Shown one piece after another: positions 1,715-40,809 of a DNA stretch of 64,000 nt. The stretch spans positions 1-64,000 of the forward strand of contig JAFQFV010000022.1 of NCBI GenBank assembly GCA_017398555.1, written 5' to 3'. The notes below the pieces were generated by a model. It searched no databases and was not told the DNA's origin. It saw only the letters and a program-made list of their open reading frames with translations. This DNA is from Alistipes sp. (GTDB taxonomy: Bacteria > Bacteroidota > Bacteroidia > Bacteroidales > Rikenellaceae). Every line of letters starts with the position of its first letter. Position 1 is the first letter of the stretch. Made by a program: the position numbers and the translations under genes.

Positions 1715-2209
1715 CGAAAATACTCTTTTAGCGTAGCAACGCAGTTGTGCCACCTCCTTTTAGGGGCTCGAACGGCTTTAGCCGTCATCGAGGGAGTCCC
1801 GTAGTCGCCGTAGGCGGTGCGGAAATAGACGACCGAGGTAACCCCACAATAAAGTCTCAGCAAGTTGTCCGTTTTTGTTTGTGGTGGATATGCTCTGCAT
1901 ATCGCGAGAAAAGAGTATTTCGAGGATGCTTGCATACAATCGACAGTACTCTTTTAGCGTAGCAACGCAGTTGTGTCACCTCCTTTTTCGGGGCTCGAAC
2001 GGCTTTAGCCGTCACCGAGGGAGTCCCGAACGTCGCGCTTGCGCGGTGCGGAAATAGACGACTGAGGTAACCCCACCCAAAGCCTCCAACGAGTTCGATT
2101 TTGTTTGTGGTGGATATGCTCTGCATATCGCAATAAAAGAGGATTTCGAGGATGCTTGCATACAATCGAAAATACTCTTTTATCGTAGCAACGTAGTTGC
2201 ACCACAAAC
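1715..2209. repeat. Tandem 226-bp multi-hairpin repeat array (R1)
   Basis: The gap between rlmD and tRNA-Lys is filled by two full units and one partial unit of a direct repeat. The word TACTCTTTTAGCG starts at 1721 and 1947 and a variant starts at 2173, so the period is exactly 226 bases twice. Each unit is a chain of palindromes. An outer stem pairs 1715-1729 with 1909-1922. Inside are CAACgcaGTTG, a hairpin on ACGGCTttAGCCGT, a variable hairpin (CGCCgtaGGCG in unit 1, CGCGCttGCGCG in unit 2), GATATGCtctGCATATC and ATGCttGCAT. Open frames across the array are overlapping and repeat-derived and are not regarded as genes. The core is shared with the array at 29.6 kb. Confidence 0.88.
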
Positions 2210-2242
2210 AAAAAAAAGACGACCGCATTTCTGCAGTCGTCT
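2210..2242 (-). terminator. Intrinsic terminator of tRNA-Lys
   Basis: On the minus strand an AGACGAC/GTCGTCT stem is followed by a run of eight T, starting three bases after the tRNA 3' end. Confidence 0.85.
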
Positions 2243-2244
2243 GG

Positions 2245-2317
2245 TGAACTCGCTGGGGCTCGAACCCAGGACCCCAACATTAAAAGTGTTGTGCTCTACC
2301 TGCTGAGCTACGAATTC
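2245..2317 (-). tRNA. tRNA-Lys(TTT)
   Basis: Seventy-three bases fold as a canonical cloverleaf on the minus strand. The acceptor stem is GAATTCG/CGAGTTC with one G-T pair. The D arm is GTAGCTCAGCAGGTAGAGC and the anticodon loop CTTTTAA gives anticodon TTT. The T arm contains GGTTCGAGCC and the discriminator base is A. CCA is not encoded. An 11-base piece of its T arm (GGGGCTCGAAC on the plus strand, 2255-2265) also occurs in both units of the neighbouring repeat array. Confidence 0.95.
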
Positions 2318-2343
2318 ATCGCACCAAATCATTTTTGGTGGTG

Positions 2344-2374
2344 CAAAGATATGACATTTTTCTTAAATGCCAAA
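2344..2374 (-). promoter_or_regulatory. Promoter of tRNA-Lys
   Basis: On the minus strand TTTG (2371-2374), 19 bases, then TATCTTTG (2344-2351): a full match to the Bacteroidetes primary sigma factor consensus. The short leader between start point and tRNA can form a GCACCA/TGGTGC hairpin (about 2320-2343). Confidence 0.8.
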
Positions 2375-2437
2375 ATAAATTACAAATTTTTGCATAGCAC
2401 AGCCATATAAGGACTATTGCAAATATTGCTCGTAGTG

Positions 2438-2468
2438 TTGTTTGTTTACAAAACTTTTTCTAATTTTG
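2438..2468 (+). promoter_or_regulatory. Promoter of the candidate 6S RNA
   Basis: TTG (2438-2440), 20 bases, then TAATTTTG (2461-2468), with a predicted start near 2475. It fires into the long structured RNA rather than directly into a reading frame. Confidence 0.6.
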
Positions 2469-2475
2469 TAGTGCT

Positions 2476-2720
2476 ATTGTGCAAATAGCAGACATACGAA
2501 AGTGTTTTTCGCAGTCCTAAATAGAAAATCTGACAGTTTTCCAAGCAAGAGGGCGAACGAACAAGCACTCATCTCTTGTATAGCTATGTGGCTATGCACA
2601 TTTTGTGCATATATCCCATACTATCCAAGTGTGGGGTATTGCATCGTTTATTCTTGCTGGGTTTTGTCAGAGCCTCTATTTAGTAAACGGAAATCAGCTC
2701 CACACTTTCTATTTTTATAT
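2476..2720 (+). ncRNA. ssrS: Candidate 6S-like regulatory RNA (rod-shaped)
   Basis: A stretch of about 245 bases without a credible gene folds as one long interrupted rod. Nested pairs from the outside are 2498-2505 with 2702-2709 (GAAAGTGT), 2517-2525 with 2675-2683 (CTAAATAGA, 9 bp), 2529-2535 with 2665-2671 (TCTGACA), 2541-2550 with 2652-2660 (one bulge) and 2556-2560 with 2644-2648. An open central region follows, then an 8-bp terminal hairpin TATGCACA/TGTGCATA (2593-2611). A closing stem, large central bubble and terminal hairpin are the architecture of 6S RNA, which binds RNA polymerase. A good promoter lies just upstream and a U-rich stretch just after. Identification as 6S is inference from shape; another structured leader of the downstream lipoprotein gene is the alternative. 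Confidence 0.55.
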
Positions 2721-2759
2721 AACTACCCATTTGGAGTTGGTGGGTAAAAACTCTATCCC

Positions 2760-38988: not shown

Positions 38989-39022
38989 TATATCTAGTTT
39001 AATATTCTTCCTAAAAAACGTA

Positions 39023-39054
39023 CAAAAGTAATCTTTTTTTCTCTAATATCCAAA
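39023..39054 (-). promoter_or_regulatory. Promoter of gyrB
   Basis: On the minus strand TTTG (39051-39054), 20 bases, TACTTTTG (39023-39030). Predicted leader about 29 bases. Confidence 0.75.
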
Positions 39055-39076
39055 TCTAAATCGTAGATTTAGGACG

Positions 39077-39814
39077 TTATTCGTTACTAATATTCACCTC
39101 CTTAACCTCTCCCTTTGAAAATAGAAGCGTGCGGGCAGGATAACTCTCAACAAAAGCGGTGTTATGCGTCGCCATAATTACCGCTGTGCCAGAGGCTGCA
39201 ATAGAGTGAAACAGCTTAACAATCGACTCGGCTGTAATAGGGTCGAGATTACCCGTCGGCTCATCTGCAAGTATCAGCTGTGGAGAGTTCAGCAGCGCTC
39301 TGGCAATCATAAGTCGCTGACGCTCACCTCCGGAGAGTTCAAACGGCATTTTATGGTGGAGATTTTCAAGACCTACCTGACGAAGCACCTCCGCCACTCG
39401 ATTGTCAATCTCTTGACGGCTCTTCCAACCCGTTGCCTTGAGGACAAATGCAAGATTTTCAAAGACATTAAACTCAGAGATAACCTCCACATCTTGAAAT
39501 ACAATACCGATATTGCGTCTTAGTTCAGGGATATGCTTGCGCTTAAGCTCTCTCAAATCAAAGCCCACAACAGAGCCCTCGCCCTCAAAAAACGGCAACT
39601 CTCCGTACAGAGTCTTAAGCAGCGAACTCTTGCCACTACCTGTACGACCAATCAAATAGACCAACTCACCACCTGCAATAGTAAGAGAGAGGTTATCCAA
39701 AACGCGCTCGCCCTCTGCGTGATAATTCTTCCGCGTAAGCCCTTTGTAAGGGTTAAGATTGTGGTAAACAGCCGCTCCACGCAACTCTACAACGAGTTTT
39801 TTATCTTCACTCAT
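39077..39814 (-). CDS. ftsE: FtsE-like ABC transporter ATP-binding protein
   Basis: A 245-residue ABC ATPase. Walker A is GRTGSGKSSLLKTLYG, Q loop IVFQDVEVISEFNVFEN, signature LSGGERQRLMIARALL, Walker B QLILADEPTGNLD, and switch His in MATHNTAF. The GNLD end of Walker B and the FEN...LKATGW spacing fit the FtsE/LolD group. A Bacteroidetes N-terminal extension (AVYHNLNPYKGLTRKNYHAEGERVLD) is present. It would act at the inner membrane with FtsX in septal wall hydrolysis; no FtsX is in the window, so the choice between FtsE and another LolD-like ATPase rests on sequence alone. It lies 88 bases before gyrB on the same strand. Confidence 0.8.
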   Translation of the reverse strand: MSEDKKLVVELRGAAVYHNLNPYKGLTRKNYHAEGERVLDNLSLTIAGGELVYLIGRTGSGKSSLLKTLYGELPFFEGEGSVVGFDLRELKRKHIPELRRNIGIVFQDVEVISEFNVFENLAFVLKATGWKSRQEIDNRVAEVLRQVGLENLHHKMPFELSGGERQRLMIARALLNSPQLILADEPTGNLDPITAESIVKLFHSIAASGTAVIMATHNTAFVESYPARTLLFSKGEVKEVNISNE

Positions 39815-39918
39815 AAATAATACATTTAACCCTCAAAATTAGGAAAAATTCCCGAATTTTCAAAACAAAAACTACATATAATCACCACAAAAAGATAAAA
39901 ACATTCAATCCCCCACCG

Positions 39919-40359
39919 CCCAAGAGAGTCGAGTGACCGCCGCAGGTTTGAGCAGAGCAAGGAAGGGATTTGCAGACGACAAAGGAGCAGACTTGGATTG
40001 TTTGGCTATGGGAGCTTGCTCACAAATAGTCTAAACAATCTAAGGCTGAAGTTGCGCAGCAACTCTGCAAATCACAAAGCCGCAGACAACTTTGCCACGC
40101 CGCCACCAGTTAAGCACAATTGCAAATTGCGAATGACCGCATAAACAACCACCACATACCACCCAAGAGAGTCGAGTGACCGCCGCAGGTTTGAGCAGAG
40201 CAAGGAGAGGGTTTTGCAGACGACGAAGGAGCAGACTTGGATTGTTTGGCTATGGGAGCTTGCTCACAAATAGTCCAAACAATCTAAGGCTGAAGTTGCG
40301 CAGCAACTCTGCAAATCTCGAAGCCGCAGACAACTCTGCCACGCCGCCACCGGTTAAGC
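39919..40359. repeat. Tandem ~243-bp multi-hairpin repeat pair (R3)
   Basis: Two near-identical units of about 197 bases start at 39919 and 40162 (CCCAAGAGAGTCGAGTG), separated by about 46 bases of other sequence. In unit 1 an outer stem GATTTGCAG (39967-39975) pairs with 40065-40073. It encloses a compound hairpin (39996-40040: GATTGTTT/AAACAATC, CTAT/ATAG, GAGC/GCTC) and AGTTGC-gca-GCAACT (40050-40064) set directly on the outer stem. Where unit 2 differs within the middle stem, pairing is kept or improved (G-T becomes G-C at the TCTAAAC/TCCAAAC position). This fills the 595-base gap between ftsE and tmRNA; no gene is seen. Confidence 0.88.
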
Positions 40360-40377
40360 GACCGAGCCACCGAAACG

Positions 40378-40401
40378 AAAAAAGGCGGACCGAAATCCGT
40401 C
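40378..40401 (-). terminator. Intrinsic terminator of tmRNA
   Basis: On the minus strand GACGGAT-ttcg-GTCCGCC (one mismatch) followed by TTTTTT, eight bases past the tmRNA 3' end. Confidence 0.75.
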
Positions 40402-40409
40402 TTTTGAAG

Positions 40410-40809
40410 TGGAGGTGGCGAGAGTCGAACTCGCGTCCAAACAAGGAACCCAAAAGCTTTCTACACGCTTAGTTGTCGTTTAATCCTTCTGCCAAGGCTC
40501 GGCAGACAACAGCCAAAACCCTGACCCCAGCCCCTAAATCTCGCACGATAACCGAGGCACATATCGCGCTATCTCTCAAAAGATGATACCCCATGTGAAC
40601 AAACTATCAGAGAGCGGGACAGCCGTTCGGGATACTCGTTGACGCAAACCTTGTGTGCATCAATTAAGCCAATTTTCCCTGAAAATTAAGCAGCGAGTGC
40701 ATAGCTATTATTGCCATTTATAGTTTGAGTGTTCATATTAACGAGCTCCCACACAACGCTCGGCGTGCTTACAATCAAATTCTACCTGCTGTCAAAACCG
40801 GTCACCCCC
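40410..40809 (-). ncRNA. ssrA: tmRNA (SsrA)
   Basis: About 400 bases on the minus strand. The ends pair as a tRNA-like acceptor stem (GGGGGTG with CACCTCC, one G-T) and the 3' part has the T arm GACGCGAGTTCGACTCTCGCC, with discriminator A and no encoded CCA. The 5' part begins GGGGGTGACCGGTTTTGAC, the typical tmRNA D-loop-like start. The internal tag frame ends ...NNSYALAA followed by TAA (near 40690), the universal YALAA-type degron. The frame is open upstream of it (NTQTING...), so the resume codon is not certain; GGC giving GNNSYALAA would match the length of Bacteroidales tags. Pseudoknot segments fill the rest. It rescues stalled ribosomes. Confidence 0.93.

What the first reader, a model, noticed from the sequence alone, without database searches (positions are those of the whole stretch)
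1715..40809. Every stable-RNA gene here is followed by a structured repeat array
The window has three tRNA-type genes: tRNA-Lys (2245-2317), tRNA-Asp (30173-30246) and tmRNA (40410-40809), all on the minus strand. Just past the terminator of each lies an array of palindrome-rich repeats: R1 (1715-2209), R2 plus the four-way palindrome (29643-30121) and R3 (39919-40359). No other gap in 64 kb carries such arrays. Three of three suggests that the 3' flank of stable-RNA genes is a preferred home for a class of structured element. Targeting, a role in RNA 3' processing, or safe neutral sites are all possible.
Basis: partly seen in the sequence, partly recalled or inferred. Interest (0 to 1): 0.75.

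Follow-up and report, generated by a model that had tools for sequence, protein, structure and literature searches.

The report
Tiny noncoding elements targeting tRNA ends
In a group of gut bacteria, short stretches of DNA without recognisable genes appear to insert again and again at a fixed spot near the end of tRNA and tmRNA genes, each usually bringing a spare copy of the gene's end so the host gene stays whole; this looks like a stripped-down kind of mobile element.

Summary
The three arrays are real, lie just past the terminators of tRNA-Lys, tRNA-Asp and tmRNA, and are the only tandem arrays TRF reports in the window. The rule extends beyond it: 18 of 19 genome hits of the R1/R2 module (6 of them in the window) lie within 1 kb 3' of a tRNA gene, in one orientation; the 19th is at a contig end. 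A pattern scan of 84,980 genomes gave 20 stretches, all Rikenellaceae/Alistipes MAGs, 19 behind a tRNA. Occupancy is partial: 16 of 33 tRNA/tmRNA genes here, 58 of 139 in four genomes, not RNase P RNA. The units look like insertions: 30 of 130 3' flanks hold a long copy of their own tRNA's 3' end (0 of 3475 swapped draws); all 20 such copies beside this module start at T54 or one base before. Sister genomes show empty sites. Most likely these are non-autonomous integrative elements (34 measured units, 114-380 bp) that use tRNA T-loops as attB and bring a replacement 3' end, usually with a terminator. A tyrosine recombinase in trans is the best but untested mover. The module has covarying arms, like a folded recombination site. 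Closest known: tandem ssrA islands of Dehalococcoides.

The parts
2242..2317 (-). tRNA-Lys(ttt), target gene of array R1
   Evidence: ARAGORN and Rfam
2210..2241 (-). terminator-like hairpin and T-run of tRNA-Lys
   Evidence: read from sequence
2103..2209 (-). large branched palindrome, unit 1 of R1
   Evidence: read from sequence
2081..2098 (-). degenerate inverted copy of the tRNA-Lys 3' end
   Evidence: read by eye
2012..2072 (-). class-1 hairpin module H1, unit 1
   Evidence: CM R1 hit 1990-2076, E 8.5e-16
1990..2013 (-). second hairpin H2 plus 11-nt copy of the tRNA-Lys T-loop/3' end (GTTCGAGCCCC)
1785..1843 (-). class-1 H1, unit 2 of R1
   Evidence: CM R1 hit 1763-1847
1763..1786 (-). 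H2 plus 11-nt 3'-end copy, unit 2; a partial third unit continues to 1715
30172..30246 (-). tRNA-Asp(gtc), target gene of array R2
30135..30167 (-). terminator-like hairpin and T-run of tRNA-Asp
   Evidence: read from sequence
30000..30134 (-). four-way palindrome region
   Evidence: read from sequence
29910..29970 (-). class-1 H1, first copy
   Evidence: CM R1 hit 29897-29974
29824..29882 (-). class-1 H1, second copy
   Evidence: CM R1 hit 29811-29887
29737..29795 (-). class-1 H1, third copy
   Evidence: CM R1 hit 29724-29800
29653..29711 (-). class-1 H1, fourth copy
   Evidence: CM R1 hit 29616-29716, E 6.1e-19
29627..29652 (-). H2 palindrome next to the 3'-end copy
29612..29625 (-). copy of the tRNA-Asp T-loop/3' end (TTCGAGTCACCTAC, 13 of 14)
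40409..40809 (-). tmRNA (tag GNNSYALAA), target gene of array R3
40378..40405 (-). terminator-like hairpin and T-run of tmRNA
   Evidence: read from sequence
40324..40351 (-). class-2 left box, unit 1
40167..40203 (-). class-2 right box ending in a degenerate T-loop copy (TCGACTCTC), unit 1
40080..40107 (-). class-2 left box, unit 2
39924..39960 (-). class-2 right box with degenerate T-loop copy, unit 2

Best explanation
The arrays are serial insertions of short, non-autonomous integrative elements (34 measured units, 114-380 bp) at the T-loop of tRNA and tmRNA genes. Shown by comparison: units behind a tRNA often close with a copy of that tRNA's own 3' end (for class 1 from T54 on), and in sister genomes the flank beyond that copy directly follows the tRNA. 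Read from sequence: most units also carry a terminator, palindromes, a conserved hairpin module (H1) and a second hairpin (H2) that abuts the displaced 3' end. So insertion keeps tRNA and terminator whole, displaces the old end, and repeated insertion or tandem duplication builds the array. Inferred: recombination runs between the element's 3'-end copy (attP core) and the tRNA (attB), with H1/H2 as recognition site. Inferred and weaker: the enzyme is a tyrosine recombinase acting in trans; the candidate is a stand-alone 304-aa integrase.
For: Own 3'-end copies (score 14 or more): 30 of 130 own 3' flanks, 2 of 137 own 5' flanks, 0 of 3475 draws from other-isotype 3' flanks. All 20 of these copies in class-1 flanks start at TTC or the G before it; 12 further class-1 flanks have shorter copies (10-14 nt) with the same start. 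Class-1 modules: 39 of 139 genes (51 modules, all sense), 0 genes with one in the 5' flank; 35 genes and 47 modules when flanks are cut at the next tRNA. Covariance model on the own genome: 19 hits, 18 behind tRNAs, 1 at a contig end (150 of 533 candidates scored). Scan of 84,980 genomes: 20 stretches, 19 behind a tRNA, first module 137-258 bp past it. Empty sites: 9 of 30 testable distal flanks follow a tRNA of the same anticodon in another genome, against 2 of 1200 controls; 5 of the 9 are clean and in single-copy isoacceptors (His, Lys(ctt) twice, Gln(ctg), Thr(cgt)). H1 covariation: triplet 51 of 64 and inner pair 59 of 64 Watson-Crick, maxima in 2000 shuffles 29 and 38. Solitary integrases of about 401 aa end arrays in G081 tRNA-Leu (class 1) and G116 tRNA-Gly (another, unmodelled type). 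The 304-aa integrase scores 370 bits or more in 4 of 150 family genomes, the same four with 9 or more modules; the next best is 299.8 bits, 49% identity.
Against: Nothing was seen moving and no circle was seen. No module lies in the 2-3.5 kb loci around the 304-aa integrase in G000, G122, G142 and G148. An arginine of its TRGM motif is Q in G000 and G122 and the protein lacks the N-terminal region of its relatives. Related integrases (E at most 1e-40) are in 77 of 150 genomes, most without the module. The four module-rich genomes may be one clade, so co-occurrence may be plain descent. Of the 9 flank matches, 3 are also explained by tandem copies and 1 (Val) is against a different tRNA-Val gene; same-gene status elsewhere rests on anticodon and gene end, synteny was not checked. 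11 of 30 copies look like simple tandem duplication. 10 of the 30 long copies lie in flanks without a class-1 module, and several of those start elsewhere (for example at A58). A double-stranded circle of about 140 bp would be very stiff. H1 was not the best fold of four single strands with DNA parameters. The queries used found no module in phages, plasmids or viral contigs.
Confidence: 0.65

Rival explanations
1. The units are scars: attL/attR remnants of ordinary gene-bearing integrative elements or prophages that were lost, not mobile units themselves.
For: About 2.7 kb with one type IIG-like restriction-modification gene and no integrase sits behind tRNA-Lys(ctt) of this genome, with a displaced 3'-end copy at its far side. 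Solitary integrases end two arrays in relatives.
Against: The compact module keeps both arms and covarying pairs in 64 non-redundant copies, which independent deletions of many islands would hardly give. The same tRNA differs between genomes by whole compact units with clean borders.
Confidence: 0.2
2. In-place tandem duplication by slippage or unequal crossing-over, as recalled for the tyrT (rtT) repeats of E. coli, with no mobile element.
For: 11 of 30 3'-end copies are followed by the same sequence as the gene itself (own score 28 or more). Arrays of two to three and a half near-identical units exist.
Against: Duplication alone does not give the empty-site cases, where unrelated new sequence ends exactly at a second 3' end, nor the same module behind 13 different isoacceptors.
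Confidence: 0.07
3. A structured RNA with a role in maturation or termination of tRNA/tmRNA transcripts.
For: Covarying pairs; always in the sense of the tRNA; terminator-like hairpins in most units (by eye).
Against: Arrays start past the terminator; 81 of 139 genes have no detected array; genomes differ at the same tRNA; in other genera 7 of 9 inspected core hits have no tRNA in their locus.
Confidence: 0.05
4. A single-strand HUH (Y1) transposase moves them, as for REP/RAYT or IS200-type elements.
For: Hairpins next to a fixed TTC junction; small size.
Against: No Y1_Tnp match in 4 of 4 module-rich genomes, two of them about 89% complete; the control rings in 5 of 14 known genomes.
Confidence: 0.03

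Closest known systems
Dehalococcoides ssrA-specific genomic islands (PMC3146451, passages read)
   Same: Tandem islands behind tmRNA bounded by 20-bp copies of the ssrA 3' end; insertion within the T-loop; some islands lack the integration module and are suggested to be mobilised with neighbours.
   Different: Those carry genes, are linked to serine recombinases and one target gene. Here units are a few hundred bp without a recognisable gene, and one module is found behind 13 tRNA isoacceptors.
Additive flexible genomic islands with tRNA-Lys 3'-end repeats in Methylophilaceae (PMC10872708, passages read)
   Different: Gene-bearing (330 bp-42 kb, 1 to 63 CDS), one tRNA, no shared folded module in the passages seen.
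MITEs and CALINs (PMC11389934, passages read)
   Same: Non-autonomous, gene-less or integrase-less derivatives moved in trans.
   Different: MITEs use transposases; CALINs are attC cassette arrays of integrons. Here the target is a tRNA T-loop.
Integron attC sites (recalled)
   Same: Conserved boxes, one-sided bulge, mismatched loops and a sequence-variable but paired terminal hairpin.
   Different: No integron integrase found near, no cassette ORFs recognised, junction in a tRNA T-loop; folded recombination not shown.
rtT repeats behind E. coli tyrT (recalled)
   Same: Tandem units downstream of a tRNA, each with a piece of the tRNA 3' end.
   Different: Single locus; here many tRNAs, a shared module and empty sites.

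Membership tests
tRNA/tmRNA-targeted integrative element | direct duplication of the target's 3' end at the far border | tested here: met
   30 of 130 own 3' flanks, 0 of 3475 swapped draws
tRNA/tmRNA-targeted integrative element | empty site in a relative | tested here: met
   5 clean cases at 4 single-copy isoacceptors; a sixth (Val) is against another tRNA-Val gene; synteny not checked
tRNA/tmRNA-targeted integrative element | own integrase gene inside the element | tested here: not met
   34 units of 114-380 bp, longest open stretch 34-120 aa; 3 tyrosine recombinases in the genome, on contigs C25 and C29, which carry no tRNA
non-autonomous (MITE-like) derivative | an autonomous partner with the same ends | tested here: inconclusive
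   full-length integrase beside a class-1 array in G081, but no far end in the 80 kb searched
integron / attC array | folded site with base pairs kept through sequence change | tested here: met
   51 of 64 and 59 of 64 Watson-Crick with 6 and 5 pair types; but H1 was not the best single-strand DNA fold in 4 of 4 tried
integron / attC array | integron integrase with attI and gene cassettes | tested here: not met
   no recognised cassette gene: 4 window ORFs over the arrays have no Pfam match above cut-off; the 304-aa protein matches PF13102 and PF00589; attI was not sought
REP/RAYT or IS200-type element | Y1 transposase in the genome | tested here: not met
   0 of 4 genomes
Rfam RNA family | match at gathering score | tested here: not met
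   only the two tRNAs and tmRNA match in the window

The most novel reading that the evidence does not exclude
A tRNA-anchored, integron-like system: mini-elements recombine as folded single DNA strands, recognised through the covarying H1-H2 hairpins by a domesticated stand-alone tyrosine recombinase without an arm-binding domain, with the T-loops of essential tRNA and tmRNA genes as the fixed platform. Gene cargo such as the restriction-modification gene behind tRNA-Lys(ctt) would ride the same route.
Probability: 0.2. Interest if true: 0.87.

Novelty: new variant of a known kind. Interest (0 to 1): 0.66.

Why it matters
The tRNA-targeted islands I read about carry genes. If these few-hundred-base units move, integration needs little more than a spare tRNA end, a terminator and two hairpins. 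That would give a natural minimal system for how integrases choose tRNA T-loops, how one module is retargeted to many tRNAs, and whether some tyrosine recombinases outside integrons use folded single strands. It may also be why several contigs of this draft genome end near tRNA genes.

Tried and rejected
RNA-processing element, tandem slippage, Y1 transposition and scars of large islands were weighed and kept as rivals. SRP RNA could not serve as a further stable-RNA test: RF00169 has no match in this genome. The queries used on viral contigs (two exact patterns), phages and plasmids (one R2 repeat by blastn) gave no module. A far end was sought behind G081 tRNA-Leu: 80 kb held no further 3'-end copy. 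In G116, copies lie only before the integrase in the 12 kb examined. RNAalifold on the MAFFT alignment found 6 pairs, with the variable stem misaligned; pairing was recovered by parsing the arms. In one search, 46 of 66 modules had a perfect stem of 3 bp or more exactly at the expected place, against 16% in shuffles; the parser missed some with shifted stems. In one search six modules could not be parsed and were dropped, leaving 64; the parser may choose a 1- or 2-nt inner pair, and the shuffles were given the same choice. TRF on 3' flanks found arrays of period 40 or more in 10 of 110 against 0 of 131 5' flanks; it did not re-find the tmRNA array (1.8 copies). Class-2 boxes gave 3 + 3 hits in 5' flanks, all 790-960 bp before tRNA-Leu(caa) genes; those in G122 lie near the neighbouring tRNA-Leu(cag), those in G000 and G142 are weak (E 3e-4 to 6e-3) and unexplained. 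Limits: one search scored 150 of 533 first-look candidates and one search scored 27 per genome with stricter filters, so weak copies elsewhere may be missed. The census uses 141 Rfam tRNA rows of which ARAGORN called 138, plus one tmRNA; tmRNA of the other three genomes was not sought; a tRNA-Met of G000 and a tRNA-Cys of G122 at contig ends may be counted twice. Long ORFs (103-163 aa) overlap R1 and R2; none of the four has a Pfam match above cut-off (two matches below it), so 'noncoding' is a judgement. Papers on this exact thing were sought and none was seen; the library holds only open-licence papers.
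Full report
Observation. The window has tRNA-Lys, tRNA-Asp and tmRNA on the minus strand, and the three tandem arrays that TRF reports lie right behind them. R1 and R2 share a module, here called class 1; R3 has another, class 2.

Genome-wide test. The window is part of a 2.03-Mb draft genome of 38 contigs, 89% complete. R1 DNA finds relatives outside the window only behind tRNA genes on contigs C35, C3, C1 and C28; R3 DNA finds them only behind tRNA genes on C33, C21 and C5 (the C21 hit is 27 bp of a palindrome). 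A covariance model of 16 class-1 copies gives 19 hits: 18 within 1 kb past a tRNA 3' end in the same sense (6 of them in the window), and one on C28, 57 bp from the contig end and pointing as if a tRNA lay off the contig. The model was built from tRNA flanks, but the search was free to hit anywhere; it scored 150 of 533 first-look candidates.

Other genomes. A pattern scan of 84,980 species genomes found 20 stretches, all in MAGs named Rikenellaceae or Alistipes. 19 of 20 lie behind a tRNA on the same strand, the first module 137-258 bp past the gene; the other (L087) is at a contig end. Among 150 genomes of the family, 16 have hits; G000, G142, G122 and G148 have 19, 10, 9 and 9, the rest 1-4 (27 candidates scored per genome). 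In four other Alistipes genomes a weak hit lies 44-53 bp past tmRNA, in units bounded by copies of the tmRNA 3' end, spaced 146-149 bp where tandem (L105, L107). In five genomes of other genera there are 11 hits, mostly to the core; of the 9 loci inspected, 7 have no tRNA in the locus, and by eye H2 is followed by TTC in 5 of 9.

Census. In four genomes I collected 139 tRNA/tmRNA genes with flanks. Class-1 modules occur in 39 of 139 3' flanks (51 modules, all sense) and in none of the 5' flanks. With flanks cut at the next tRNA gene it is 35 genes and 47 modules, over 13 isoacceptors. Class 2 occurs in 10 genes, 9 tRNA-Leu and the tmRNA; 5'-flank hits of its boxes are told under Tried and rejected. 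By class 1, class 2, a 3'-end copy or a TRF array, 58 of 139 genes are positive, 16 of 33 in this genome. RNase P RNA has none. So the 3' flank is the home, but fewer than half of the genes are occupied.

What the units are. Best matches of at least 14 to the gene's own last 40 nt occur in 30 of 130 own 3' flanks, 2 of 137 own 5' flanks and 0 of 3475 draws from other isotypes; inverted copies in 14 of 130. In the 20 of these 30 flanks that carry class 1, the copy starts at TTC (T54) or the G before it; 12 more class-1 flanks have shorter copies with the same start. The other 10 lie in flanks without class 1, some with other starts, for example at A58. Comparison of genomes gives empty sites. 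For tRNA-Lys(ctt), the sequence directly behind the gene in G000 lies in G142 only after two extra units, each closing with a 3'-end copy. For tRNA-His, the sequence directly behind the gene in G142 lies behind a class-1 unit in G148, and the same is visible in G122. Of 30 testable distal flanks, 9 directly follow a tRNA of the same anticodon in another genome (2 of 1200 in controls). Three of the nine also resemble the unit's own start; one (Val) matches a different tRNA-Val gene. Five cases at four single-copy isoacceptors are clean; synteny was not checked. 11 of 30 copies are plain tandem repeats of one unit. 34 units measured from gene end to 3'-end copy are 114-380 bp, with open stretches of 34-120 aa at most. 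By eye most carry a terminator-like hairpin; the 137-bp tRNA-Gly unit of G000 does not.

The module. Class-1 H1 reads GTTACC-TC-XX-TC-NNN-bulge-CCGCA-CC-stem-loop-stem-GAC-TGCGG-NNN-TC-YY-TC-GGTGAT, followed by a second palindrome H2 and then TTC. In 64 non-redundant copies the NNN triplets are Watson-Crick in 51 (six pair types) and XX/YY in 59 (five types); 2000 shuffles of the right halves reached at most 29 and 38. On 35 distinct arm combinations the counts are 23 and 30. Relatedness inflates such counts, but the number of pair types is hard to explain without selection on pairing. The terminal stem varies in sequence yet was perfect at the expected place in 46 of 66 copies, against 16% in shuffles. 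The arms keep TC on both sides and a one-sided bulge, so as duplex DNA they are not perfect inverted repeats; that favours a folded single strand, DNA or RNA. Against this, DNA folding of four copies did not choose H1 as the best structure.

The mover. The genome has three tyrosine recombinases: two that I read as a XerC/XerD pair (not tested) and a third of 304 aa, with PF13102 and PF00589. The third lacks the N-terminal region of its full-length relatives and is 58-66% identical between the four module-rich genomes. It has shared neighbours: a 1091-aa ORF in G000 with 76-80% identical counterparts in G148 and G122 and a weaker one in G142, and a 1145-aa ORF shared by G122, G148 and G142 at 86-94%; the G000 contig ends just past the integrase. 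In 150 family genomes only these four score 370 bits or more; the next is 299.8 (G131), and 77 of 150 have some relative at E 1e-40. This is suggestive, but the four may be one clade. Its TRGM arginine is Q in G000 and G122 and R in G142 and G148, and no module lies beside it. Full-length relatives sit at the ends of arrays in G081 (class 1) and G116 (another type), without a far end in the stretches searched. Y1 transposases gave no match in 4 of 4 genomes. I therefore prefer a tyrosine recombinase in trans, with moderate confidence.

Cargo. In this genome tRNA-Lys(ctt) is followed by about 2.7 kb with one 766-aa gene matching N6_Mtase and HSDR_N and, in PADLOC-DB, type I methyltransferase and type IIG models, then by a 15-nt copy of the tRNA-Lys 3' end and a flank like the one G122 has directly behind the gene (by eye). 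No integrase gene was seen in it. So the same site seems to accept gene-bearing units.

Comparison with what is known. Tandem islands bounded by tmRNA 3'-end repeats with insertion in the T-loop are published for Dehalococcoides (PMC3146451, passages read), and tRNA-Lys 20-nt repeats for Methylophilaceae islands (PMC10872708, passages read). tRNA fragments as marks of integration are described in PMC9897764 (passages read), integrase-less hitchhikers such as CALIN and MITE in PMC11389934 (passages read). Williams 2002 on sublocations is recalled; it was not held. I saw no report of noncoding, terminator-bearing mini-elements at many tRNAs. I file this as a new variant of tRNA-targeted integration.

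Noticed in passing
L147 (G000 contig C2:54500-60000), ORF 1429-3729: About 2.7 kb behind tRNA-Lys(ctt) carries a type IIG-like restriction-modification gene and no recognised integrase, with a displaced tRNA 3'-end copy at its far side (by eye).
   Followed up: partly
L060/L148 (C29), L289, L290, L291: A stand-alone tyrosine recombinase of about 304 aa with shared neighbours in four genomes, lacking the N-terminal region of its relatives and more diverged than most of its neighbours.
   Followed up: partly
L106, L108, L110, L111, L113, L120, L122, L123, L124: In other Rikenellaceae genera the same H1 core sits in palindromic repeats, 7 of 9 without a tRNA in the locus; L123 looks as if it lies inside a coding region (not tested) and L108 beside a duplicated tRNA part (by eye).
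   Followed up: partly
L002, L003, L014, L018, L028, window 39915-40359: Large palindromes in several different arrays share a loop like GTGAGCAAGCTC whose role is unknown.
   Followed up: no
G000 contigs C1, C21, C22, C26, C36, C37: Six contigs begin or end within about 350 bp of a tRNA gene, as if these loci break the assembly; the tRNA-Met at the ends of C22 and C36 may be one gene seen twice.
   Followed up: no
window 16168-17089 and 24750-26202: Degenerate repeats of about 600 bp inside long ORFs (532 aa and 1238 aa), probably repeated protein domains.
   Followed up: no
L001/L011 (C34:7448-7992), L024, L267: Further unit types not modelled here (one shared by the convergent tRNA-Thr and tRNA-Pro; units whose 3'-end copy starts at A58; the type at G116 tRNA-Gly), suggesting more than two element families.
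   Followed up: no
G000 C5 and G142 C7, 790-940 bp before tRNA-Leu(caa): Weak class-2 boxes on the opposite strand with no tRNA gene known beside them.
   Followed up: no
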